A model generated the notes under the pieces. That model was not told the DNA's origin. It was given only the letters and a program-made list of their open reading frames with translations, and did not search any database. Positions 7,485 to 18,741 of a stretch of 61,917 nt of DNA are shown piece after piece. Made by a program: the position numbers and the translations under genes. Location: contig NZ_JAEULP010000021.1 in the NCBI RefSeq assembly GCF_016792905.1, forward strand, positions 1 through 61,917. Reading direction: 5' to 3'. This DNA is from Tabrizicola sp. GTDB lineage: Bacteria; Pseudomonadota; Alphaproteobacteria; Rhodobacterales; Rhodobacteraceae. The stretch's first letter is position 1, and each line of letters begins with the position of its first letter.

Positions 7485-7760
7485 ATGGGCACAGGCAGAA
7501 CGGATGAATTTCGCAAGGACGCGGTGCGGATCGCGCTGACGAGTGGGCTTTCGCGGCGTCAGGTTGCGGATGATCTGGGCGTCGGCTTGTCGACCTTGAA
7601 CAAGTGGGTGAACGCACACCGCGACACGGATGTCGTCTCGTCCGAGGATCGCGAGCTGGCACGAGAGAACGAACGGCTTCGGCGCGAGATCCGCATCCTC
7701 AAGGAGGAGAGGGACATCCTAAAAAAAGCCACCCAGTTCTTCGCGAGCCAAAAGCCGTGA
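7485..7760 (+). CDS. IS3-family transposase OrfA
   Basis: A 91-residue protein with a helix-turn-helix (RRQVADDLGVGLSTLNKWV, residues about 24-44) and a C-terminal leucine-zipper-like coiled coil (ENERLRREIRILKEERDILK), exactly the OrfA layout of the IS3 family (HTH_Tnp_1). It binds the element ends. Near its end, seven A residues at 7721-7727 followed by G form the slippery site at which ribosomes shift by -1 into orfB to make the OrfAB transposase. The frame of orfB relative to orfA is indeed -1. Confidence 0.92.
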   Translation: MGTGRTDEFRKDAVRIALTSGLSRRQVADDLGVGLSTLNKWVNAHRDTDVVSSEDRELARENERLRREIRILKEERDILKKATQFFASQKP

Positions 7761-8207
7761 GGTTCAGGTTCGTCGAAGAACAGCGCGGGGCTTTCCCGGT
7801 CGACCGGCTGTGCCGGGTGATGAATGTCAGCCCGCGTGGCCTGCGGGCCTTCCGCAGCCGTCCGGCCAGCCGCAGGCAGCACATGGACATGGTCGTTCTG
7901 GCGCACATCAAGGAGCAGTCGCGGCTGAGCCTGGGCAGCTATGGCCGCCCCAGGATGACCGAAGAACTCAAGGAGGTTGGCGTCGATGTCGGGCACCGGC
8001 GTGTCGGGCGACTGCTATGACAACGCCGCCGTTGAGACCTTCTTCAAGACGATCAAGGCCGAACTGATCTGGCGCCGCGCGTGGGAGACCCGACGCCAGG
8101 CCGAAACCGCCATCTTCCAATACATCAACGGCTTCTATAACCCGCGCCGTCGGCACTCAGCATTGGGAGGCAAAAGCCCCTTGGCCTTCGAACGCCAAGT
8201 GGCCTAA
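7721..8207 (+). pseudogene. IS3-family transposase OrfB, internally deleted and frameshifted
   Basis: Two pieces of a DDE integrase are joined out of frame. The first (to the stop at 8020) contains VRFRFVEEQRGAFPVDRLCR and SYGRPRMTEELKEVGVDVGH. The second, in another frame, contains GDCYDNAAVETFFKTIKAEL and the C-terminal FYNPRRRHSALGGKSPLAFE. The central part with the first two catalytic aspartates is gone; only the final Glu region remains. Both sides of the junction would read GGGCGACTG in a full-length element, so the loss probably occurred between short repeats. Catalytically dead. Confidence 0.9.
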
Positions 8208-8217
8208 ACGAGCAATG

Positions 8218-8245
8218 GGAGCGGCACCAAACCGCGACAGGTCCA
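8218..8245 (-). repeat. IS3 right terminal inverted repeat
   Basis: A 28-bp perfect inverted copy of 7422-7449, followed by the second ACG target duplication. The region 8246-8423 beyond it holds no gene I can recognise, only the leader of the next gene. Confidence 0.93.
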
Positions 8246-8423
8246 ACGCGGATTATCCCATGCAGCCTGAATGAGGCGCTCAGAAGGTGCGTCGTAGAAC
8301 TACATTGGGCGTCGGGAGATCACTTAGCAGGATGCTGAAGACTGACCAGATCTCCATGGGGTCTTATAACTATGCTTACATCGCATTACATTTGAGGGAC
8401 GTACGAGGGAAGCGGACAACCCC

Positions 8424-8855
8424 ATGAAAGCGTCGTTTACAGTGGAACCAGAATGTCCAGAGGACCTGCAGGGGTCACTCGCGGTGGCATGTCCTGGCCA
8501 AGACCATTTGCATCCGAATTATCGTCGCGCTTGCCGAGAATGTGTGAACAAGATTTGCGCGAGAATGTGGGCCATCGGTCTGGACGATGACGGAAACGCG
8601 CTCCCAGCAAGTGATAGGCCGTTTTGTGGCGCCAGAACTAGAGCAGGCGGAACCTGCCGGCACAAGGTCGTCCCGTACATGGCGCGCTGCCGGTTCCACG
8701 GTGGAAAGTCAACGGGCCCGAGGACCTTGGAAGGGAAGACTCGCATTGCGGAGGCTCAACGGCAACGCTGGGCGAGATGGCGGCAGCGTCAACAGAAGGC
8801 CGACGACGACAAACACTGGAAGCTGGCGGGGAGTGTCGACGGCTTCCGAGGATGA
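8424..8855 (+). CDS. HGG-x-x-TGP-motif protein, phage/island type, function unknown
   Basis: A 143-residue basic protein. Residues 68-92 form a candidate zinc site (CGARTRAGGTC, then C89 and H92 in CRFHGG), followed directly by the conserved segment HGGKSTGPRTLEGKTRIAEA and RQRWARWRQRQ. Proteins with this HGG-S/T-TGP-T-EG-RI block are frequent in alphaproteobacterial prophages and islands, but I know of no established function. Three more cysteines lie at 37, 40 and 45. It ends 2 bp from the stop of hsdR in convergent orientation, so it forms the left side of the defence cluster. It may be DNA-binding, which is inference from charge and the metal site. Confidence 0.7.
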   Translation: MKASFTVEPECPEDLQGSLAVACPGQDHLHPNYRRACRECVNKICARMWAIGLDDDGNALPASDRPFCGARTRAGGTCRHKVVPYMARCRFHGGKSTGPRTLEGKTRIAEAQRQRWARWRQRQQKADDDKHWKLAGSVDGFRG

Positions 8856-8857
8856 CG

Positions 8858-11800
8858 TCAAGCCGAGTTAAGCTTGCGATAAGCCTCTGAAGACAGCCAA
8901 CCAGTTACGACCTTCTGGAACGATTTGTCATTCATGAACCGTGCAAATATCTCCTCGTTCTGATCCATGCGTTCGACGAAAAGCGCCTCAAGTAGGTTTT
9001 TGAAGACGAGTTCAAACTTGTCGCCAGGATTGGCGGCTGCCGCCTGCCTCAAGGCTCCATCAGAGATCGCTGCCTCTACAATTTGGTCGAAGAAGAGCTG
9101 ATCCGCCTGATTGAAGTCAGTTCCGAACCGGTCGTTGACGACGTCGATGAGCCGCGACAACGGAATCGCTTCTTCGTGCAACACACCGGTACCGACCTCG
9201 GACGGTCCATCTAGCTTGTTGGCCTGACCATCATTTAGGCTGATCGAGCCTTCGCTGATTTTCTGCAACCGGTAGTATTCGAGCCGCACCTCATCATCGA
9301 ACTGGTAGGAAGGGCCAGTTCCGCGCTTTGGCAGCTTAGTCGCAAGATGCCGAAGGAAGACGTAAAGGCGTTCAAGATCCGTGTCCTGATAGGGAATGAT
9401 CTGGCTGAGGAATCCGTAGAGACTGCAAAAGGCCATCAACTTGCCGCGCCACAGCTCGGCTTCGTCGGGCTTCTCCTGCTGGGTCTCCTTGAAGATGGCC
9501 ACACAAGGATCAAGCGCGGCGTTCATTACCTGATGATCATTTGGGCTCTGGCGTTGGCGCGGCTTGAAATAGATGGCGCTGAAGCGGTCCACGTCTGCAA
9601 CGATATAAATGCCCTCGGCGTCCAGTTCGCTCTTCAGCTCGTACATTCTGGCCGGATCGACGTCCTCGCCGACCTCCGCGCCTTCGAAATAGGTCTTGAA
9701 CGCCTCGCGGATCTCATCGGGCTCGTTGACGAAATCGAGGACGAAGGTGTCTTCCTTCAGGGGGTGGATTCTGTTCAGGCGAGATAGCGTCTGCACCGCC
9801 TGGATGCCGGCAAGCCGCCGGTCCACATACATCGTGTGCAGCAATGGTTGATCGAAGCCCGTTTGGTACTTCTCGGCGACGAGCAACACTTGGTATTCCT
9901 GCGTAGCAAAAACCTCCGGCAGTTCCTTCTCACGGACGCCGAGGTTCATGCCCTCCTCGGTATAGGTGACGTCCCTCATATTGTCGTCCGTGACTGCGCC
10001 TGAGAAGGCCACCAGCGATCTGATTGCGTAGCCCTTCTCCTTCACGTAGCGATCGAAACTCTGCTTGTAGCGAACGGCCTCGAGCCGCGAACCGGTCACC
10101 ACCATGGCCTTTGCGCGGCCACCGATCTTGTGCTGCGTGGCCCCGTGGAAGTGCTCAATCATCACTTCGGTCTTCTGAGCGATGTTGTGCGGATGAAGCT
10201 TAAAGAACCGCGCGAGGGCGCGTGCTGCCTTCTTCCGCTCGACGTTCGGATCATCCTCGCTTGCCTTGAGCAGCCGGAAATAGGTGGCGTAGGTCGTGTA
10301 GTGCTTCAGGACGTCGAGGATGAAGCCTTCCTCGATAGCTTGGCGCATAGTGTAGCGATGGGCAGCTTTGCTGTCGCGCCCGAAAACCTTGAGCGTCCTG
10401 TGCTTCGGCGTAGCAGTAAACGCGAAGAAACTGAGGTTTGCCTGCCTGCCACGTTTCGCCATGGACCGATACAGCTCGTCCATGCCGTCTTCGTCATTCG
10501 CCGCCATGGCTCGCGCAGCCTCTTCGCGAAGGCCTTGCCCGCCGAGAACTTCCCTGACGTCGGTTGCCGTCTCGCCGCCCTGCGAGCTGTGTGCCTCATC
10601 AATGATCACCGCACACCGGCGCATCTTCAGCACGCCTCCTTCGGCGTCGCCTCGCTCTTCGGCGATCTTGGCCAACTGACGCGAGACGAATGGAAACTTC
10701 TGCAGGGTGGTGATGACGATCGGCACGGCACTTTCGAGTGCTTCCGCCAGCTGGCGCGAGTCCTCGTCGATCTTCTGGACGACGCCGTGCTTGTGTTCGA
10801 ACTGATAAATCGTGTCCTGAAGCTGTTTGTCCAGGACCACGCGGTCAGTGATGACGATCACGCTGTCGAAAACCCGCGCGTTCGCTTCGTCATGCAGCGA
10901 TGCGAGCCTGTGCGTCAGCCAGCCGATGGTGTTGCTCTTTCCGCTGCCGGCCGAGTGTTCGATCAGATAGTTGTTGCCCACCCCTTCTCTCAACGCTTGG
11001 TCCACTAACAACCGGACCGCTTCAAGCTGGTGGTACCGCGGAAAGATCATCGTTTCCTTCTTGACCTTTCGACCTTGGTCGTCGCGCTTCTCCTCGACCT
11101 GGAGATGAATGAAGCGCGCCAGGAGGTCGAGCAGGCTATCTCGCTGCAGCACCTCTTCCCACAGATAAGCCGTTCGGTAGCTTCTACCTTTGGGATCAGG
11201 CGCATTACCGGCGCCACCGTTGTTTCCCTTGTTGAAGGGCAGGAAGTGGGTGGCCGCACCGGCAAGCCGGGTGGACATGAACACTGTGTCCGTGTCGGCG
11301 GCAAAGTGGACCAACATACGCCGCTTGAATTCAAAGATTGGCTCGCGTGGGTCGCGATCATGCCGGTACTGGTGCAGGGCGTGCTCGACAGTCTGTCCGG
11401 TCATCGGGTTCTTGAGCTCGACCGACACGACTGGAATGCCATTGACGCTCAGTACGACGTCTAGGGACTTTTCGGATGTCCTGGAGAAGTGCAATTGCCG
11501 CGTGAGCCCGACGCGGTTGGCGGCGTAGCGAGCTTCCAACTCCGGGTTCAGCCCGTGCGCAGCCTTGAAGAATGCAACGCGAAGAGTCTTGCCGTAGCAC
11601 TTGAAGCCGTGACGCAAGGTGGCCAGAGAGCCCTCTCGGTCCATCCACTTGGTCAGATCGGCCAGGACTTGGGAGCCAGTTTTCTCCCCATGGAGCGCCT
11701 CCAGAGCCTTCCATTCCTTCGGCTGTGTGTCGCGGATGAAGGAAAGGACGGTCTCGGGAAAGATGGCGCGATCACGGTCGAATCCCGACGCAGGTTCCGG

Positions 11801-11875
11801 CACGGTACCATTCGCCAGCATCGTAGCTTCGATGACGGTCTCGAATGCACCTTCTGAATGTCGCGAATGGTTCAT
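8858..11875 (-). CDS. hsdR: Type I restriction enzyme R subunit (HsdR)
   Basis: A 1005-residue motor nuclease that cuts DNA lacking the HsdM mark. The N-terminal nuclease domain has the D...E-x-K pattern in LDVVLSVNGIPVVSVELKN near residues 138-155. The SF2 translocase has Walker A HSAGSGKSNT near 305, the DEAH box VIIDEAHSSQGG near 427, FTATPKHRTL, and the later motifs EKYQTGFDQPLL and QTLSRLNRIHP. The start at 11875 is fixed by a 4-bp ATGA overlap with the preceding ptuB-like gene; the open frame extends 45 codons further upstream but only as ptuB out of frame. It is the last gene of a five-gene coupled operon. It appears intact. Confidence 0.96.
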   Translation of the reverse strand: MNHSRHSEGAFETVIEATMLANGTVPEPASGFDRDRAIFPETVLSFIRDTQPKEWKALEALHGEKTGSQVLADLTKWMDREGSLATLRHGFKCYGKTLRVAFFKAAHGLNPELEARYAANRVGLTRQLHFSRTSEKSLDVVLSVNGIPVVSVELKNPMTGQTVEHALHQYRHDRDPREPIFEFKRRMLVHFAADTDTVFMSTRLAGAATHFLPFNKGNNGGAGNAPDPKGRSYRTAYLWEEVLQRDSLLDLLARFIHLQVEEKRDDQGRKVKKETMIFPRYHQLEAVRLLVDQALREGVGNNYLIEHSAGSGKSNTIGWLTHRLASLHDEANARVFDSVIVITDRVVLDKQLQDTIYQFEHKHGVVQKIDEDSRQLAEALESAVPIVITTLQKFPFVSRQLAKIAEERGDAEGGVLKMRRCAVIIDEAHSSQGGETATDVREVLGGQGLREEAARAMAANDEDGMDELYRSMAKRGRQANLSFFAFTATPKHRTLKVFGRDSKAAHRYTMRQAIEEGFILDVLKHYTTYATYFRLLKASEDDPNVERKKAARALARFFKLHPHNIAQKTEVMIEHFHGATQHKIGGRAKAMVVTGSRLEAVRYKQSFDRYVKEKGYAIRSLVAFSGAVTDDNMRDVTYTEEGMNLGVREKELPEVFATQEYQVLLVAEKYQTGFDQPLLHTMYVDRRLAGIQAVQTLSRLNRIHPLKEDTFVLDFVNEPDEIREAFKTYFEGAEVGEDVDPARMYELKSELDAEGIYIVADVDRFSAIYFKPRQRQSPNDHQVMNAALDPCVAIFKETQQEKPDEAELWRGKLMAFCSLYGFLSQIIPYQDTDLERLYVFLRHLATKLPKRGTGPSYQFDDEVRLEYYRLQKISEGSISLNDGQANKLDGPSEVGTGVLHEEAIPLSRLIDVVNDRFGTDFNQADQLFFDQIVEAAISDGALRQAAAANPGDKFELVFKNLLEALFVERMDQNEEIFARFMNDKSFQKVVTGWLSSEAYRKLNSA

Positions 11876-12501
11876 TTGGTTGCACCTGCCAACTTCTCTT
11901 TCATGAACCAGACCGCTACTGGGCTGAAGGGCTGATGTTCTAGACCATTCACTCGGCTGTTGATCTGCTGCGGAATCTTCGTCTTGGCGTTTGGGGTGGA
12001 GCGCCACCATGCCAGTACCGAATCTAGGGCGGCTTTTCGATTGCTACGAAGAAACCCAATATTCAAGCCAAGGACCTCATTCAATTGTGAGTTGAAGTCC
12101 ACGTCGTTGCTTTCAATTGTACCATCAAAGAGATAACGTACTTTAGTCTCGATCATATGAGCGCTGTCTGCTGGGTTCCACTTAAGGTCTAGATTCCCCT
12201 TTTTTGTATCGCAATGTTGTTCAGCCGCTGATCGTCCATCTCCGCCCAGACAGGCGCCTAGGAGGTTCGCATAGACGAGTTGCAGTCCGGCATGATCGGA
12301 TTGGCATCTCCAATGCTCAATTTTCATCGAAGTCGAGTCAGCGCGGATCCGCCCAGTGCAATAGCAGCACAGGCCTTTCTGTTCGCCGACAAGCGCGGCT
12401 CGCAGTTCATCCTTTTGAGTATAGTTGTCGTAGTTGCTGTGTGCTTTCGCCCGATGTTCTGTCAAACTCTTGGGTTCTGCGCCCTTGGTGATCATCCTCA
12501 T
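11872..12501 (-). CDS. ptuB: PtuB-like HNH endonuclease (Septu nuclease, TIGR02646-type)
   Basis: A 209-residue protein with a complete HNH/beta-beta-alpha-metal fold signature: zinc pair C45-x2-C48 in GLCCYCTGRI, H63 in KIEHW, N79 in YANLLGAC with C84, and H96-C97 in QHCDTKKGN. This order is that of the TIGR02646 family, whose members serve as PtuB in Septu defence and as effectors in some retrons. It would be the DNA-cutting effector switched on through the neighbouring ATPase. It overlaps both neighbours by 4 bp (ATGA), so its expression is locked to the ATPase and to HsdR. Function is by family; activity is not shown by sequence. Confidence 0.85.
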   Translation of the reverse strand: MRMITKGAEPKSLTEHRAKAHSNYDNYTQKDELRAALVGEQKGLCCYCTGRIRADSTSMKIEHWRCQSDHAGLQLVYANLLGACLGGDGRSAAEQHCDTKKGNLDLKWNPADSAHMIETKVRYLFDGTIESNDVDFNSQLNEVLGLNIGFLRSNRKAALDSVLAWWRSTPNAKTKIPQQINSRVNGLEHQPFSPVAVWFMKEKLAGATK

Positions 12502-13748
12502 TCGTCCTCCTCCAAGAAGTCGAGGAGGGTCATTGCACGCGTGATTTCCGGATCATCTTCACCAATATCTTCGGAAAGAAGCTTTATTTCGGCCTTTGCA
12601 GCTTCTGATTTGCCATCGCCTATTAGCTTCGCAATTCTTGCTATTCTAGCTTCGACGCCTGCATTCCTTGGTCTTGTGTCCATGACCTCTTCAAGGATAC
12701 GGCTCGAGTCGATACCGAAAGAGCGCGCCGGCGAATATACTTGGCCGTCCTTGATCAGCAGGATTCTGTCGTGAGCTACTTCGCCAATTACCTGCGGTGA
12801 ATGGGTGGTGGCAATAAACTGGCAACCATGGAACGTCTCCGTCAAAAGGGGCACAATCTGCCGCTGCCAAAGCGGGTGCATGTGCATGTCGATTTCGTCG
12901 ATAAGAACAACTCCGATGCCGTCTCTGACAGGATCTTCGAGGTTTGGATTGGCTTGCGAGAGGCGGCGAGCTAGGTCGAGCGCCAGCGCAAGAACGCCTC
13001 TCTCACCCTCAGAGAGATATCGGACGTCGAGTTCAATACCGTCCTTCGAAATCAGAAGACGCGGCTTGTCCGCGCCATTGGTCGCCCTCAGGCCCGTGCA
13101 GGTGGGCAAGAAACGCGCTGTTGCAGACCTGAGAGCCTCAAGGTGGCTGCCCGCCCGCGGCAGTTCATCTGCAAGCGCCTCTTGCGCAAGCATCCAGGAA
13201 GCAAGCTCCCGCAGGTGTAGCGGCCGCACATCGGAAAGCGCATCGGCATAAGCCGAAGCGGGCCCAGACTGCGCCCGGCCGCCCCTTATCTGTTCGTCGG
13301 ATGGGTGGGAACGACGCGTTCCGAAATAGACCGCGATCGGCTGAGAGCCAGGCGGATACGGTTTCGACAGCCGCAGTGGCGTGAACTCCTCCCTTTCAGG
13401 CGTCTCGATGGTCCCTTCGCGTACCGATCCTTCCTTGCCCTCGACAAATCTCTCCCGCGGCTTGTGCAATAGGAAGCGCTGCTCGGCGTCATCAGGAAAG
13501 CGAAACAAGACGTCCACGGTCAACGATGCGGCGCCCAACCGAATATCATCTGCTGAGAACGCCAAAGGCGCCGCACGGCTTGCCGTGAACTTGGGCATGA
13601 CCCGGGACAGTGACACACGTAGTGCCTCAAGCACACTGCTCTTGCCGACGCCGTTGACACCCACCAGCAACGTGAACTGCGGATCGAAGTCAAAGGTCGC
13701 CTGGTCAAACCCACGAAGGCCGGCAACGCTGAGCTGTCTAATCTTCAT
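12498..13748 (-). CDS. ptuA: PtuA-like AAA/ABC-type ATPase (Septu ATPase)
   Basis: A 416-residue SMC/OLD-like ATPase. It opens MKIRQLSVAGLRGFDQATFD, has Walker A GVNGVGKSS at residues 30-38, the ABC signature LSEGERG near 245, Walker B VVLIDEIDMHMHP near 280, and the switch histidine in FIATTHSPQVI. That is the arrangement of PtuA-type ATPases that pair with an HNH PtuB. In Septu the ATPase holds and controls the nuclease until infection is sensed. It overlaps hsdS upstream and the HNH gene downstream by 4 bp each, so the pair is embedded in the hsd operon. Related RloA/RecF-like ATPases are an alternative name; the adjacent TIGR02646 gene favours Septu. Confidence 0.85.
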   Translation of the reverse strand: MKIRQLSVAGLRGFDQATFDFDPQFTLLVGVNGVGKSSVLEALRVSLSRVMPKFTASRAAPLAFSADDIRLGAASLTVDVLFRFPDDAEQRFLLHKPRERFVEGKEGSVREGTIETPEREEFTPLRLSKPYPPGSQPIAVYFGTRRSHPSDEQIRGGRAQSGPASAYADALSDVRPLHLRELASWMLAQEALADELPRAGSHLEALRSATARFLPTCTGLRATNGADKPRLLISKDGIELDVRYLSEGERGVLALALDLARRLSQANPNLEDPVRDGIGVVLIDEIDMHMHPLWQRQIVPLLTETFHGCQFIATTHSPQVIGEVAHDRILLIKDGQVYSPARSFGIDSSRILEEVMDTRPRNAGVEARIARIAKLIGDGKSEAAKAEIKLLSEDIGEDDPEITRAMTLLDFLEEDE

Positions 13749-14989
13749 GCGGCCTCCGAGATTTCGAGCTGGCCGGTCACGGCGGCCGCGATCAGGGCTG
13801 CGCGGCGTTCTTTCAGCAGGGCGATGGAGTTCTCGGTCGCAGTGCGCAGGCGGTCGATCTTGGCGGTCTCGGTGCTGATGTGTTCGACGATCTTTTGCTG
13901 TTCATCGAGCGGCGGCACCGGCCACCAGGTTTCGAAGAAGCCCTCGGGATAGAGCCGCAGTCGGGAGGACCAGACACCCTTGGAATAGCGGGTCACTTCC
14001 TGCGCGAAGATCGGGATGCGGACCAGCGCATCGACGTAATCGGGCAGCAGGCGCGGGTCCGGGGTGTAGACATTGTAGGCGGGGCTGACGATGCCATCGA
14101 CGCGGGCGGTGCCCATGGCGCCCATCCAGGCCCAGAGGGTGTTGATGGCGAGGTCCCCGGCGAAGCACAGCTTGTAGCCCGCGGTGCTTTCAGCCTCGAA
14201 CATGTTCACGTCCTTCTCGGACCGGGGGGTGACGCCGGTCAGGTGAGAGACCGTCAGCATTTCCTCTTCGCCGGTCTGGGACCGCTGGTCGCGTTCGGTG
14301 AACAGCCAGCGCGACCGCTCGATCTCCCAATGCGCAGGGATATCGCCAAGCCAGTCGATGCCTGACGGGCGCAGGGGCGCGGAAGGGTCGAGGCCGCGCA
14401 TGACGGCCTCGGCCACGATGGCACGCCGCTTCTCGGCCATCAGGTCGAGGAGTTTCTGCTTGGCAGAGATGAGGGCGTCGATTTCGGCGGTTTCAACTTC
14501 CACATAGTCAGCGATAAGTTTCTGGGCCGAGATTGGAGGCAAAGGGATCGCAATGTCTCCGATCTCCGATGCGTTGATCGCGGGGTAACTGATGCCGGTC
14601 GATCGCTTCTCCACTTCGGCCAGAAACGTCGGCTCGCGAAGGACATACCGGCAGAATTTCGCGTCCATCATTTCAGGACGCGGCCTGATCACCGCAAAGC
14701 CGGTCGAGACGATAAGATTCTCGGGCGGATTGGTGATCGGCGCAATAGCCTGAAGGTAAGTCCGAACCGTAGAGATTATGACATCACCGTCGCGAACAAT
14801 ACGCCGCGCCCGGCTCGGTGCGGCTTCGAAACGATAGGTTGCGATCTGATGTACTGCCCCTGACGAGTTCACGTTTCCAATGTCGATGTACTGAATCTCG
14901 AAATCTGGATCGACATCTTCGGTCAACGTCTCATCGTTGATTGTAGCTGCAAACTTCAGTCGCTCCCGCGGGAACAGGTTGTGGGACAT
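13745..14989 (-). CDS. hsdS: Type I restriction enzyme specificity subunit (HsdS)
   Basis: A 414-residue protein with two target-recognition domains, each followed by a conserved helical spacer: IPLPPISAQKLIADYVEVET with its long helix at about residues 150-200, and PVPPLDEQQKIVEHISTETA at about 355-400. HsdS reads the split DNA target and carries HsdM, and HsdR for cutting. The ATG at 14989 shares one base with the hsdM stop (TGATG); a GTG one codon earlier would give a 4-bp overlap instead. Both half-domains look intact. The recognised sequence cannot be deduced here. Confidence 0.94.
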   Translation of the reverse strand: MSHNLFPRERLKFAATINDETLTEDVDPDFEIQYIDIGNVNSSGAVHQIATYRFEAAPSRARRIVRDGDVIISTVRTYLQAIAPITNPPENLIVSTGFAVIRPRPEMMDAKFCRYVLREPTFLAEVEKRSTGISYPAINASEIGDIAIPLPPISAQKLIADYVEVETAEIDALISAKQKLLDLMAEKRRAIVAEAVMRGLDPSAPLRPSGIDWLGDIPAHWEIERSRWLFTERDQRSQTGEEEMLTVSHLTGVTPRSEKDVNMFEAESTAGYKLCFAGDLAINTLWAWMGAMGTARVDGIVSPAYNVYTPDPRLLPDYVDALVRIPIFAQEVTRYSKGVWSSRLRLYPEGFFETWWPVPPLDEQQKIVEHISTETAKIDRLRTATENSIALLKERRAALIAAAVTGQLEISEAA

Positions 14990-16992
14990 CACGCCGTCAC
15001 CTCCCGCAAAAGCCGAAGGATCTCGTCCTCCGCCTTCTTCAGGTCTGCGTCGATGTCGACCAGCCTGCGGGGCGGAGTGAACTGATAGAAGTGGCGATTG
15101 AAGTTGATCTCGTAGCCGACCTTGTCCTTGCTCCGGTCCATCCAGGCATCGGGCACATGCGGCAGAACCTCGCGCGCGAAGTAGGCGTCGATATCCTCTT
15201 TCAGGGGCACGTTCTCGAAGTCGCGCAGGTCAGGGTCGGCCTCGAAACCCTTGCCTTCCCTGACCTTCTCGGCCTCCGGATCCTTCTCGGTGAACACGTT
15301 GCGGAACAGCTTGACCTCGGGCGCGCGCCAGCGGGACTCGCGCTTTTTCAACAGCTTCTCGATGCTGGCCCAGACCTTGTTCCAATCCAGTTCCGGCTCG
15401 CGCCCCAGCGCCTGGTCGATCGCCTGAATGTCGTCGAGTAGGTGCGGTGCCGCGTCGAGGAAGCGGGCCTTGTCCTCGACCATCATCCGATAGCGCAGCC
15501 GGAGCGGACGTTCGACGGTGACGCGGGTATAGCCGAAATCGGCATTGTCGAAGATCTTGGACTTGGCGTTCTGCGCGTAGCCGCCGTAGAGGCGCACGAT
15601 CTCGGCGATCTGATCGGGTTCGTCCGGGCGATCATCCCCTTCGGGCGCCTTGCCCGCGCCGATCTTGCGGCGCTTGTCGCCCTGGCTGCGTCCCATGGGC
15701 ATCCAGATGTCGCGCGCGTCGACCAGTTGGATGGTGCCCTTGCGATGGTCGGGCTTGTTGTTGGTGACGACCCAGATGTAGGTGCCGATCCCGGTGTTGT
15801 AGAACATCTGTTCCGGCAGGGCGACGATGGCCTCGAGCATGTCGCGTTCGATGATCCATTTTCGGATGTTGCTTTCGCCGCCGCCCGCGCCCCCGGTGAA
15901 CAGGGGTGACCCCGAGAATACGAGGGCCGCGCGCGAGCCATACTTCTGTGCCTTCGGATTGACGTCTTCGAACTTCGAGATCATGTGCTGCAGGAACAGC
16001 AAGGAGCCGTCGTTCACACGCGGTAGGCCCGCGCTCCACGGGCTGTCCTGCGGGGCCTTTTCATGGCGCCGGACGATTTCCTTCTGCTGCTTTTTCCAGT
16101 CCACGCCGAAAGGCGGGTTGGCGATGAAATAGTCGAATGTCTGCCCGTCGAACTTGTCGTCGGTGAAGCTGTCGCCGTACTGAACATTCTCCCCACCACC
16201 GTTGTGGTCGACCTGCTTCATGAGCATGTCGGATGCGGCCGTCGCGAAGGCGCGCTTGTTGTAGTCCTGGCCGTAGACGTAGAGCTTCGCTTCCTTGTGG
16301 TGATCGCGCATGTAGCGCTGTGCCTCAGCAAGCATGCCCCCCGTGCCGCATGCCGGGTCGAGCATGCGCATGACGGTGCCTGGCTTGCTGAGCACGTCGT
16401 CAGCATCCATGAAAAGAAGATCGACCATAAGGTGGATCACCTCGCGGGGCGTGAAGTGATCGCCCGCAGTCTCATTGGCCAGTTCGTTGAATCGTCGGAT
16501 GAGGTTTTCGAATACGAGGCCCATCTGATCGTTCTTTACCCGGTCTGGATGCAGATCGACCTTCAGGAACTCTTTCAGCACGAGGTAGAGGATGTTCGCC
16601 TCGTCCATCTTCTCGATTTCGTTGGTGAATTCGAAGAAGTCGAATATGCGCCTCACGTTGGCCGAGAAGCCACTGATGTATGACGAAAGGTGGCGTGCCA
16701 AGTTGGGGGTATCGCCGATCATCGTTTGGAACGTCATCGGCGAACGGTTATGGAAGCGGTGCCCGGATGCCTTGTTCAGCATCCGGTCGAGAGCATCGTC
16801 CTCCAGCCTTCCACCCTTTCGCTTTTCATACTCCGCCAGAACCTGGTCCTTTGTATTGGCCAGCACGCAATCGAAGCGGCGCAGAACGACAAGCGGCAGC
16901 ATGACGCGCTCATACTGCGGCGGGCGATAGGGCCCGCGCAGGAGGTCCGCGATCTGCCAGATCAAGTTCGCCAGGTCCGAGTGGCTTGCCAT
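14989..16992 (-). CDS. hsdM: Type I restriction-modification DNA methyltransferase subunit (HsdM)
   Basis: A 667-residue N6-adenine methyltransferase. The helical HsdM N-domain (LIWQIADLLRGPYRPPQYER) is followed by FTPREVIHLMVDLL, the SAM motif MLDPACGTGGML and the catalytic ANPPFGVDWKK. It methylates host DNA at the HsdS target, using S-adenosylmethionine. It is longer than the roughly 500-residue classical HsdM; the extra C-terminal region (about 520-667) contains ESRWRAPEVKLFRNVFTEKD and is typical of the class of HsdM proteins with a helical tail. It starts 45 bp after the antitoxin-like gene and overlaps hsdS. Confidence 0.95.
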   Translation of the reverse strand: MASHSDLANLIWQIADLLRGPYRPPQYERVMLPLVVLRRFDCVLANTKDQVLAEYEKRKGGRLEDDALDRMLNKASGHRFHNRSPMTFQTMIGDTPNLARHLSSYISGFSANVRRIFDFFEFTNEIEKMDEANILYLVLKEFLKVDLHPDRVKNDQMGLVFENLIRRFNELANETAGDHFTPREVIHLMVDLLFMDADDVLSKPGTVMRMLDPACGTGGMLAEAQRYMRDHHKEAKLYVYGQDYNKRAFATAASDMLMKQVDHNGGGENVQYGDSFTDDKFDGQTFDYFIANPPFGVDWKKQQKEIVRRHEKAPQDSPWSAGLPRVNDGSLLFLQHMISKFEDVNPKAQKYGSRAALVFSGSPLFTGGAGGGESNIRKWIIERDMLEAIVALPEQMFYNTGIGTYIWVVTNNKPDHRKGTIQLVDARDIWMPMGRSQGDKRRKIGAGKAPEGDDRPDEPDQIAEIVRLYGGYAQNAKSKIFDNADFGYTRVTVERPLRLRYRMMVEDKARFLDAAPHLLDDIQAIDQALGREPELDWNKVWASIEKLLKKRESRWRAPEVKLFRNVFTEKDPEAEKVREGKGFEADPDLRDFENVPLKEDIDAYFAREVLPHVPDAWMDRSKDKVGYEINFNRHFYQFTPPRRLVDIDADLKKAEDEILRLLREVTA

Positions 16993-17037
16993 GTCGTTCA
17001 GTCTCCTGCCGGTTTGTCCGGTCTGTTGTTGTGCTGA

Positions 17038-17241
17038 TCAGTCTTCTTGCCCCGGGCGTTTGCCCGATGCCCCGGAAGCCACCTGCTTCTTCGCCTTTGC
17101 CGTCAGTCGCTCGAATTCTTCAACGGCAAGCACCACGACGACAGACCGGCCGTACTTCTCGATGGCAACAGGCTCCGCCCTCGCCATGTCGATCAGCCGC
17201 CCAAAGGCGTTCTTGGCATCGCGCGCCGACATGCTTTGCAT
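17038..17241 (-). CDS. Phd/YefM-family antitoxin-like protein, apparently without toxin
   Basis: A 67-residue protein, MQSMSARDAKNAFGRLIDMARAEPVAI..., with the Phd/YefM N-terminal DNA-binding and dimer fold (S-A-R-D-A-K-N-x-F-x-x-L, then E-K-Y-G-R-S-V-V-V-V-L). It has a clear GGGGAGG ribosome site. The usual toxin gene downstream (Doc, YoeB or PIN) is missing; hsdM follows after 45 bp. The most economical reading is that it represses the whole operon as a small transcription factor. A remnant of a toxin-antitoxin pair is the alternative. Confidence 0.85.
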   Translation of the reverse strand: MQSMSARDAKNAFGRLIDMARAEPVAIEKYGRSVVVVLAVEEFERLTAKAKKQVASGASGKRPGQED

Positions 17242-17523: not shown

Positions 17524-18741
17524 CTACCCATCGTCATTTACCTTCCACACGTAGCTGTCAAATTGGCGCACTAGGCCGTCGTCCATTAGCTTTTCAACAG
17601 CGCGATCGAATGCCTTTTTCAGGGCCGCGGGATTGTCGCTCGCTGTGATCCCATGCCGGCCGCACATCACCTTCCAGTCGCTGAGACTGACAACCGGACG
17701 GGTCGGATAGTTCGGGCTGCTGATGATGCGCCCGTTTTCGATAAGGGCTTCCGAAAGGGCCTGCATGGCCACGTCAGGTTTCTGCGAACCGCGTGGCCTT
17801 CTGGCGTTGGGCTTTGCGTCAACATCTCCATCCAGGCGCGGAACAAGGGTCGTGCCCCCGCTGGGCGTGTCCACGACGTCGAGGCGGAAACCCCACTTGC
17901 CGTTAGAGTCCGCGTCCTTGTGCCGGTCCACCGTCAGGATGGTTGTCAAATTATGCTTTACGCCTTCGGCTTTCAGGCGGGTGTCGAAGCTTCCCCAGAA
18001 ATGCGTGTGCATCCGGGCGCGGGTTTCGTCAGCCCAGCCAGTGTGTGCCACGGTCAATACCGCACATCCTAACTCGCGCATGATTCGATTGACATTGCGC
18101 ACCCAAGCCGTCGCTGTCTCATGGACGGTTTCCGGACCGGACATGGACGCGCCGAATATATCGACCAGGACCAGCGTTGGGAGTTCGGGAAGTCCGCGCC
18201 CCACCTCGATCAAGGCGTCAACCCAATCCGGCCGATCAAGCATCACCTCATCCGGTATGACCACGATGTTGCGACGAAGGGCTTGCGGAATCTGGTGCGC
18301 ATCCATCCAACCGGGGATCCTCTGCTTTGCAACACCGCGCGACCCTTCGGTGGCGACGTAGATCACTCGGCTAGGCTTCCCGGCTGTGGTCCCCTGCCAG
18401 CTGCTGCCGGTAGCGACCGCACAGGCCATGTCGATTGACAGGAAGGTCTTGAAGGCATTCGACTTGCCAAAAAGCAGAGCCGATGACTTTCTGGCTAGAA
18501 CGCCTTCAATCAGCCATTCCGGATCATCCAATGCCAGCATGTCGTCATAGGACCAGACGCGTAGCTTGGGTTTGTCGACGATTTGCTCGGCGCGCTCCCC
18601 ACTTGGAAACCGCATCACGTTCCCCGCCGCTTCCGTGGCGTAGGCCTCATCCGGCAGAGGCGGCGGGCAGCCGTCATCGTCATCCACCGGCGGGGCCAGC
18701 TTCAGTTCACGCAGCCACGAGGCGTCATAGTCGAGGGTCAT
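17524..18741 (-). CDS. RepA/AAA_25-type ATPase of a mobile element
   Basis: A 405-residue RecA-fold ATPase. Walker A is FGKSNAFKT at residues 91-99 after WLIEGVLARKSSALL; later come RVIYVATEGSRGVAKQR, the Walker B-like LPTLVLVDIFGASMSG and the AVLTVAHTGWADETRARMHT switch region. This matches the RepA/KaiC-like hexameric helicase family found in plasmids and integrated elements, for example RSF1010 RepA. A C-terminal winged-helix-like part (residues about 320-405) may bind DNA. Its start overlaps the preceding gene by 4 bp. Its stop is next to the GGGACA repeat tract, so it could act there in element replication, which is inference. Confidence 0.85.
   Translation of the reverse strand: MTLDYDASWLRELKLAPPVDDDDGCPPPLPDEAYATEAAGNVMRFPSGERAEQIVDKPKLRVWSYDDMLALDDPEWLIEGVLARKSSALLFGKSNAFKTFLSIDMACAVATGSSWQGTTAGKPSRVIYVATEGSRGVAKQRIPGWMDAHQIPQALRRNIVVIPDEVMLDRPDWVDALIEVGRGLPELPTLVLVDIFGASMSGPETVHETATAWVRNVNRIMRELGCAVLTVAHTGWADETRARMHTHFWGSFDTRLKAEGVKHNLTTILTVDRHKDADSNGKWGFRLDVVDTPSGGTTLVPRLDGDVDAKPNARRPRGSQKPDVAMQALSEALIENGRIISSPNYPTRPVVSLSDWKVMCGRHGITASDNPAALKKAFDRAVEKLMDDGLVRQFDSYVWKVNDDG

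What the first reader, a model, noticed from the sequence alone, without database searches (positions are those of the whole stretch)
8858..17241. Septu-like PtuA-PtuB pair nested inside a type I restriction-modification operon
Seen: hsdM, hsdS, an SMC/ABC-like ATPase, an HNH protein with the full C-x2-C...H...N...H-C layout, and hsdR lie on one strand. Every junction overlaps: 1-4 bp at hsdM/hsdS, then ATGA at the other three. Known: TIGR02646 HNH proteins with such ATPases form Septu (PtuAB), and the anticodon nuclease PrrC or Rlo proteins are nested in hsd operons elsewhere. Inference: the pair is a second-line guard that fires when phage proteins disable or alter the Hsd complex, with strict co-expression of both layers.
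Basis: partly seen in the sequence, partly recalled or inferred. Interest (0 to 1): 0.88.

Follow-up and report, generated by a model that had tools for sequence, protein, structure and literature searches.

The report
Septu pair inside a restriction operon
A bacterial operon that cuts foreign DNA carries, between its own genes, a second two-gene anti-virus weapon called Septu; the pairing recurs in many relatives, and the weapon part is repeatedly exchanged while the host operon stays much the same.

Summary
On the minus strand a Phd-like gene, hsdM, hsdS, ptuA, ptuB and hsdR lie in that order; hsdM to hsdR are joined by 4-base overlaps. Profiles and conserved motifs, and for PtuA the predicted fold, make the pair Septu PtuA-PtuB; no retron reverse transcriptase was found in the window. 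The order is not unique: ptuA follows hsdS in 17 of 18 readable loci of this hsd clade, window included, and in 12 of 13 found by HsdM alone. In more distant type I loci it was found in 0 of 62. The 17 nested PtuA form one branch (97/90), and Septu sits in the same slot of at least two other, distant hsd operons. On similar hsdM/hsdR backbones the HsdS recognition domains, parts of PtuA with PtuB, and once the whole pair, are exchanged. One relative carries IetAS instead, another both. I favour an autonomous second defence layer in a recurrent cargo slot, co-expressed with hsd (0.6). A PrrC-like guard gated by the Hsd complex (0.27) is not excluded and is worth testing. My capped paper searches showed no report of Septu nested in a type I operon.

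The parts
17038..17241 (-). Phd/YefM-type antitoxin-like gene, 67 aa, first gene of the presumed operon; no toxin gene between it and hsdM
   Evidence: PF02604 2.2e-10; homologous stretch in L031, L033, L038 but no hit in L032 (where the query was a 40-aa reading of the same DNA in another frame); annotated as Phd/YefM antitoxin in Ketogulonicigenium vulgare
14989..16992 (-). hsdM, type I DNA methyltransferase subunit, 667 aa
   Evidence: PADLOC MTase_I 3.8e-254; N6_Mtase and HsdM_N
13745..14992 (-). hsdS, specificity subunit with two variable recognition domains
   Evidence: PADLOC Specificity_I 1.3e-80; two exchanged blocks
12498..13748 (-). ptuA, Septu ABC-type ATPase, 416 aa, starts in ATGA overlap with hsdS
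   Evidence: PADLOC PtuA1 2.1e-118; profile of nested PtuA matches solved PtuA 8ee4 over 1-415; model pLDDT 81.8 matches Septu and retron PtuA
12501..12773 (-). PtuA residues 326-416, C-terminal part, exchanged together with ptuB in three relatives
11872..12501 (-). ptuB, Septu HNH nuclease, 209 aa, TIGR02646 family
   Evidence: PADLOC PtuB1 1.5e-68; TIGR02646 above cut-off; profile of nested PtuB matches PtuB 8ee7
8858..11875 (-). hsdR, restriction and translocation subunit, 1005 aa, starts in ATGA overlap with ptuB
   Evidence: SWI2_SNF2, HSDR_N; PADLOC REase_I 8.4e-36

Best explanation
A type I R-M operon with a defence cargo slot between hsdS and hsdR, filled by a complete Septu PtuAB pair. 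The pair has been kept with this hsd clade over wide divergence, is probably translated with it through 4-base overlaps, and most likely acts as an autonomous second layer: HsdMSR restricts unmodified DNA, and PtuA (ATPase) holds and releases the PtuB nuclease when infection changes the cell. Shown here: gene identity by sequence and fold, order, overlaps, lineage fidelity, exchange of parts, low dN/dS. Inferred: co-transcription, translational coupling, nuclease activity, its target (tRNA or phage DNA, as reported for other PtuAB), and independence from Hsd.
For: Septu identity by profiles and fold (PtuB fold weakly). ptuA directly after hsdS in 17 of 18 readable loci of the clade, window included; 12 of 13 among loci found by HsdM, window excluded. 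None in 42 and 20 more distant type I loci. One PtuA branch for the nested rows. Cargo behaviour: IetAS in place of PtuAB in G1025; PtuAB plus a pair 88 and 81% identical to that IetAS in G1109; GmrSD, KAP, AbiEii, HD-family and DUF4357 proteins in S-R slots of other operons; whole-pair exchange at gene borders in G942. In the passages that I saw, expressing PtuAB of Septu EcB88 was enough to keep E. coli from being quickly lysed by T4 and T6, though less so at high T6 doses (PMC13096335).
Against: The association is far more faithful than a random draw of cargo would give, and at least two further hsd operons hold PtuAB in the same place, which hints at a functional link. In G942 PtuAB was replaced by a PtuAB again, with a PtuB that groups with the PtuB nested in another hsd operon (long branches, placement warned). 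No activity was measured.
Confidence: 0.6

Rival explanations
1. Guard model: PtuAB is held inactive by the Hsd complex, as PrrC is by EcoprrI and as retron Ec83 PtuAB is by msDNA, and is released when a phage inhibits or alters Hsd; it then cuts tRNA or DNA and aborts infection.
For: Same slot as prrC in the prr operon (slot order recalled; embedding of prrC and activation upon inhibition of EcoPrrI by T4 Stp in PMC12707154, passage). Lineage fidelity and nesting in other hsd operons. PtuAB of retron Eco7 arrests growth alone and is neutralised by RT plus msrmsd (PMC11555353, passage), so this effector type accepts an external gate. No RT found in the window.
Against: HsdM and HsdR 97 and 94% identical to the window's beside a PtuA only 32% and a PtuB 26% identical (G942); in L252 residues 41-240 of PtuA are 20-38% identical while HsdM and HsdR stay at 84 and 88%. 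A conserved docking surface is hard to fit with that. The slot also takes IetAS.
Confidence: 0.27
2. Hitch-hiking cargo: the slot is only a recombination hotspot next to hsdS, PtuAB sits there because hsdS recombines often, and the position brings neither functional nor regulatory benefit.
For: Exchanged segments lie next to the recognition-domain exchanges; 31 of 42 distant type I loci have an ORF of 90 aa or more between hsdS and hsdR (ORFs are mechanical); [quoted passage not shown]
Against: PtuAB is kept in 12 of 13 HsdM-found loci rather than a random draw of cargo; frames and low dN/dS are kept.
Confidence: 0.1

Closest known systems
Stand-alone Septu (PtuA-PtuB; e.g. E. coli structure 8EEA, Septu EcB88)
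   Same: PtuA ATPase and PtuB HNH by profile and fold; Walker, signature and H-loop residues invariant in 13 nested PtuA (motif names recalled)
   Different: Sits between hsdS and hsdR with ATGA overlaps; the nested PtuA form their own branch
Retron type I-A / Ec78 effector PtuAB
   Same: Type-a PtuB groups with two of three retron PtuB rows (98/91); TIGR02646 family
   Different: No RT found in the window; below the Ec78 PtuA and PtuB cut-offs; PtuA 416 aa against 542 aa (Ec83) and 550 aa (Ec78; one entry of 456), with residue 3 aligning to residue 63 of the Ec83 protein
PrrC nested in EcoprrI (and RloC)
   Same: Accessory nuclease gene inside a type I operon (PMC12707154, passage)
   Different: PrrC is one protein (recalled); here ATPase and HNH nuclease are two proteins of the Septu family; gating by Hsd not shown
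RptR-RMS-DarTG2-M48 island of enteropathogenic E. coli
   Same: Small regulator gene first, then hsdM, hsdS, a two-gene defence module, hsdR (PMC12255303, passages)
   Different: First gene is Phd-like and its role untested; module is PtuAB; behind hsdR two of three relatives tested have a DUF4357/GIY-YIG-type gene, which the window lacks; the 143-aa ORF next to the window's hsdR has no Pfam hit
Septu with Hma
   Same: Hma occurs often with Septu type I (PMC8565338, passage); Septu embedded in Hma is stated in PMC12255303; an apparent case is L240
   Different: Host operon there is helicase-DUF1156-ATPase, not type I R-M
TgvAB in the V. cholerae VPI-2 type I operon
   Same: A two-gene defence module interrupts a type I operon (PMC11411939, passages)
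   Different: GmrSD-related type IV enzyme, not PtuAB

Membership tests
Septu (PtuAB) | PtuA-family ATPase | tested here: met
   PADLOC PtuA1 2.1e-118; profile match to 8ee4 PtuA, positions 1-415, 1.7e-64; fold matches
Septu (PtuAB) | PtuB HNH nuclease directly downstream with conserved His and Asn | tested here: met
   PADLOC PtuB1 1.5e-68, TIGR02646 above cut-off; E62, H63 and N79 invariant in 13 rows; fold model weak, pLDDT 67.8, best match Septu PtuB, only two matches at E 0.001 or better
Septu (PtuAB) | Oligomeric PtuA-PtuB complex and anti-phage activity | not testable with these tools
   needs expression and phage challenge
Retron type I-A | Retron reverse transcriptase beside ptuA | tested here: not met
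   no hit at E up to 1 in six frames of the window, with one retron RT as query
Retron type I-A | Ec78 PtuA and PtuB equivalog cut-offs | tested here: not met
   224.7 of 500 and 90.1 of 150 bits
Type I restriction-modification | HsdM, HsdS and HsdR genes on one strand in one gene cluster | tested here: met
   HsdR misses the TIGR00348 cut-off (201.1 of 284.55 bits) and HsdM that of TIGR00497 (85.6 of 242.75), but Pfam and PADLOC agree
PrrC-like Hsd guard | Accessory nuclease gene inside the hsd operon | tested here: met
PrrC-like Hsd guard | Nuclease silenced by the Hsd complex and released by anti-restriction proteins | not testable with these tools
   indirect evidence is mixed
PrrC / RloC protein families | Match to a PrrC or RloC family | tested here: not met
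   none among the best 25 of 131 PADLOC families shown for PtuA, nor in its Pfam and NCBIfam lists; the other 106 PADLOC rows were not shown

The most novel reading that the evidence does not exclude
A Septu effector that has been placed under control of a type I R-M complex: the Hsd methyltransferase or restriction complex takes the role that RT-msDNA has in retron Septu, so that inactivating or altering Hsd releases PtuAB, a split two-protein counterpart of PrrC, with the PtuA tail plus PtuB as an interchangeable warhead.
Probability: 0.25. Interest if true: 0.85.

Novelty: new variant of a known kind. Interest (0 to 1): 0.56.

Why it matters
Type I operons are known to harbour guard or cargo genes (PrrC, DarTG2, TgvAB). 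Here one cargo, Septu, has stayed with one hsd clade across wide divergence, while its effector end and the DNA recognition domains are both exchanged. That gives a natural series of operons with nearly the same HsdM/HsdR and different effectors, in which the question whether nested defence genes are gated by their host operon or merely travel with it can be tested directly. If the guard reading is right, the effector shared by Septu and retrons would have a further kind of controller, and anti-restriction proteins would be triggers.

Tried and rejected
Retron effector: rejected, no RT found in the window and below the Ec78 cut-offs.

Hit counts from PtuA searches as a measure of association: rejected as biased, since L031, L032, L262 and L210 came only from PtuA searches. 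The 12 of 13 uses loci found by HsdM: L033, L038, L128-L134, L138, L139, L252, L253. Left out before that count: the window; three of four near-identical K. vulgare plasmids; four viral contigs that end in hsdM or hsdS (L250, L251, L254, L255). The 28 unopened are partial or weaker matches, the best 53% over about two thirds of HsdM. Of 672 plasmid records with HsdM 668 lie under 60% and were not opened for this; the best listed has 47%. Four more viral contigs with HsdM at 39-45% (L256-L259) were scanned only by profile: none shows PtuA. G023 and the Paracoccus sanguinis record were taken as one genome because the contig lengths agree (31,921). L210 has only a fragment of HsdM (47% identical over 350 columns) and no hsdR on its contig; I count it in the clade because of its PtuA; without it the count is 16 of 17.

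The idea that the PtuA ATPase head is locked to the Hsd backbone: first supported (11 loci, residues 1-325 against HsdM r 0.95, against PtuB 0.19; 326-416 against PtuB 0.90, against HsdM 0.41, with G942 and L133 left out). Three loci added later weakened it (14 loci, G942 and L133 again left out: 0.84 against HsdM, 0.13 against PtuB; tail 0.88 against PtuB, 0.46 against HsdM; without the three type-b loci the tail tracks HsdM at 0.95 and the head tracks PtuB at 0.79), and L252 has its own PtuA head with a window-like tail. So I claim separate exchange of blocks, not locking.

Descent of the G942 PtuA: place unsure (long branch; pairing with the hsd3 PtuA not rejected, p 0.072). Common origin of hsd1 and hsd3 PtuA: p 0.049, borderline.

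Empty insertion site in three genomes of the same genus: not found, the left flank differs. E. coli search with the hsd2 pair: 187 of 5426 genomes have a place, all at 60-80% identity; the two that I opened are not beside hsd genes but between smrB and fimbrial genes, in one of them with the ATPase gene annotated in two pieces. The HsdR scan of viral contigs added no new locus.
Full report
WHAT IS THERE. On the minus strand, from 17241 down to 8858, lie a 67-aa Phd/YefM-type gene, hsdM, hsdS, ptuA, ptuB and hsdR. The overlaps between hsdM and hsdR read GTGA, ATGA, ATGA, ATGA. PADLOC gives PtuA1 at 2.1e-118 and PtuB1 at 1.5e-68 as best hits. TIGR02646 is passed by the HNH protein; the two retron-Ec78 equivalogs are missed. 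A profile of the nested PtuA matches the solved Septu PtuA 8ee4 over its whole length (1.7e-64) and the PtuB profile matches PtuB 8ee7 (2.3e-15). For an AlphaFold2 model of PtuA (pLDDT 81.8) the 50 best PDB matches listed are all from retron or Septu PtuA structures. The PtuB model is weak (pLDDT 67.8; two matches at E 0.001 or better), yet its nine best matches are all from Septu or retron PtuAB structures. In 13 PtuA rows the Walker A, signature, Walker B and H-loop residues are invariant; in PtuB, C45, Y47, E62, H63, N79 and K101 are. The motif names are from general knowledge. A search with one retron RT found none in the window.

THE ORDER RECURS. Relatives were sought by PtuA, by HsdM and by HsdR. 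Eighteen loci of one hsd clade can be read past hsdS, window included. Where measured, HsdM is at least 55% and HsdR at least 67% identical to the window's, except L210, whose HsdM is a contig-end fragment at 47%. PtuA follows hsdS in 17 of 18 (16 of 17 without L210). Thirteen are plain M-S-A-B-R. L131 has two short ORFs before hsdR, the first Phd-like. L134 has, behind ptuAB, a pair 88 and 81% identical to the IetAS pair of L132. L133 ends after ptuB. In L210 ptuB is cut short, with an ORF behind it that I read as a transposase. The exception, L132, has IetAS in the slot (PADLOC 1.4e-147 and 7e-302). In 12 relatives measured, the hsdS/ptuA overlap is 4 bases in 11 and the ptuB/hsdR overlap 4 bases in 8 (starts chosen by me).

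CONTROLS. Counting only loci found by HsdM and leaving the window out, PtuA follows hsdS in 12 of 13. Among 42 readable type I loci with HsdM at 38-48% (local identity) none has PtuA or PtuB in the slot (one weak PtuA-profile hit of 24 bits in L174 lies behind hsdR), nor do 20 further loci with HsdM at 48-52%, 18 of which include hsdR. 28 of 102 HsdM places were not opened (see Tried and rejected). Loci share descent, so these counts are not independent trials.

LINEAGE AND NUMBER OF ENTRIES. In a tree of 57 PtuA all 17 hsd1-nested rows form one branch (97/90, 96% of bootstrap trees; 14 rows gave 95/92). The row of G942 is on a long branch and its place unsure. Rows labelled as beside hsd genes need four changes on the tree. 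Two of these are complete nestings in other type I operons: an Enterobacter plasmid next to Tn7-like genes with hsdS-hsdM-hsdS-PtuA-PtuB-hsdR (L235; the same PtuAB DNA in three plasmid records), and G1042 with hsdM-hsdS-220 aa ORF-PtuA-PtuB-hsdR (L229; this hsdR is my reading of the sequence, my HsdR profile did not reach it). The fourth label, L222, has only hsdS upstream on a short contig. A Rhizobium plasmid has PtuAB between a helicase and a DUF1156 gene, as expected for Hma (L240). Of 56 PtuA-like loci in viral contigs 3 are hsd1-nested and no other has an HsdM or HsdR hit; my Hsd profiles come from this superfamily and, as L229 shows, can miss other type I families.

EXCHANGE OF PARTS. 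DNA comparison of the window with seven relatives shows hsdM and hsdR continuously similar, while other blocks drop out: the first HsdS recognition domain in all seven, the second in L032 and L033, the end of ptuA plus ptuB in L033, L038 and L130, and all of ptuAB in L128 (G942), from the end of hsdS to the start of hsdR, between stretches of about 85-97% identity. The replaced PtuB of L033, L038 and L130 (type b) lacks the second cysteine of the C-x2-C and the H-C-D motif. It groups with stand-alone PtuB (97/92; that group also holds the hsd2 row and L222), type a with two of three retron PtuB rows (98/91), and the G942 PtuB with that of hsd3 (100/99; both long, and the program warns of long branches there). 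G942 and hsd3 also share PDLC00315 as best PtuB model. The border in PtuA lies near residue 325, where the model passes from the ATPase core towards a helical end. In L252 it is the other way round: residues 41-240 of PtuA are unlike the window (20-38%), the tail and PtuB like it (58-72% and 65%). Correlations that first suggested a PtuA head tied to Hsd weakened with more loci. dN/dS of ptuA and ptuB is 0.05-0.14 in two pairs without an exchange and 0.31-0.35 for ptuA in two pairs that span one.

HOW IT LIKELY WORKS. Coupled translation with Hsd is inferred from the overlaps; co-transcription is inferred too. PtuAB of other systems is described as PtuA hexamers with two PtuB that degrade phage DNA (PMC12198126, table passage), or as cleaving or depleting tRNA-Tyr (Septu EcB88 on infection, PMC13096335, passages; retron Eco7, PMC11555353, passages). 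Which target this PtuB has is unknown. In retron Ec83 msDNA holds PtuAB inactive (PMC12948488, passage), and PrrC is activated when T4 Stp inhibits EcoPrrI (PMC12707154, passage). By analogy Hsd might hold PtuAB here. The fidelity of the association favours some link; the near-constancy of HsdM and HsdR beside an almost unrelated PtuAB, and IetAS in the same slot, favour independent layers. I put 0.6 on independence, 0.27 on a guard, 0.1 on mere hitch-hiking.

WHAT IS KNOWN. Modules between hsdS and hsdR are known: DarTG2 in enteropathogenic E. coli, where the authors call the site a potential hotspot and mention Septu embedded in Hma (PMC12255303, passages); TgvAB lies inside the VPI-2 type I operon (PMC11411939, passages). 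The PADLOC paper reports Hma often with Septu, and Septu with a reverse transcriptase (PMC8565338, passages). In a sample of ten accessory proteins from other type I operons read here, seven lie between hsdS and hsdR: GmrSD-type (L140, L153), KAP (L142), DUF4357 (L160), HD-family (L170), AbiEii (L177) and one without a Pfam hit (L174); three lie between hsdM and hsdS: AAA_15-type (L135), GmrSD (L137), Abi_2 (L145). I saw no paper that reports Septu inside a type I operon: searches over openly licensed PMC papers, of which I saw the listed rows only (several searches held more papers than were listed), and passages of 12 papers. The preprint of Payne and colleagues on embedded defences is not held and may contain such a case. 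Hence: new variant of a known kind.

Noticed in passing
window 17038-17241: A Phd/YefM-type antitoxin gene without a toxin gene between it and hsdM opens the operon, in the place where the enteropathogenic E. coli island has its repressor rptR; it could be the operon's regulator.
   Followed up: partly
window 7485-8860: A transposase piece (HTH_Tnp_1) and an unrelated 143-aa ORF lie behind hsdR. The window's HsdR lacks the last 14-17 residues of three relatives, and the DUF4357/GIY-YIG-type gene that follows hsdR in two of three relatives tested is missing, so the 3' end of the operon seems rearranged.
   Followed up: partly
L033:8262-8957, L038:8259-8942, L130:9139-9840: Type-b PtuB has lost the second Cys of C-x2-C and the HCD motif but keeps E62-H63 and N79; possibly an HNH nuclease without its zinc site.
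   Followed up: partly
L132:3913-7519: IetAS occupies the hsdS-hsdR slot of the same hsd clade in place of PtuAB; an 88 and 81% identical pair follows PtuAB in L134.
   Followed up: yes
L210:1-1965: ptuB is cut short, with a transposase-like ORF behind it, while ptuA and hsdS are open.
   Followed up: no
L238:7001-8851: PtuA and PtuB-like parts are encoded as one 616-aa protein in a Phocaeicola vulgatus plasmid, in a cluster with TIR, SIR2 and RloB-family genes.
   Followed up: no
L235:1-8921: An Enterobacter plasmid carries hsd genes with nested PtuAB directly behind Tn7-like transposition genes, so this combination may be transposon cargo.
   Followed up: partly
window 17524-18741: An AAA_25 ATPase gene lies upstream of the operon; three genomes of the same genus have other genes at this flank.
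   Followed up: partly
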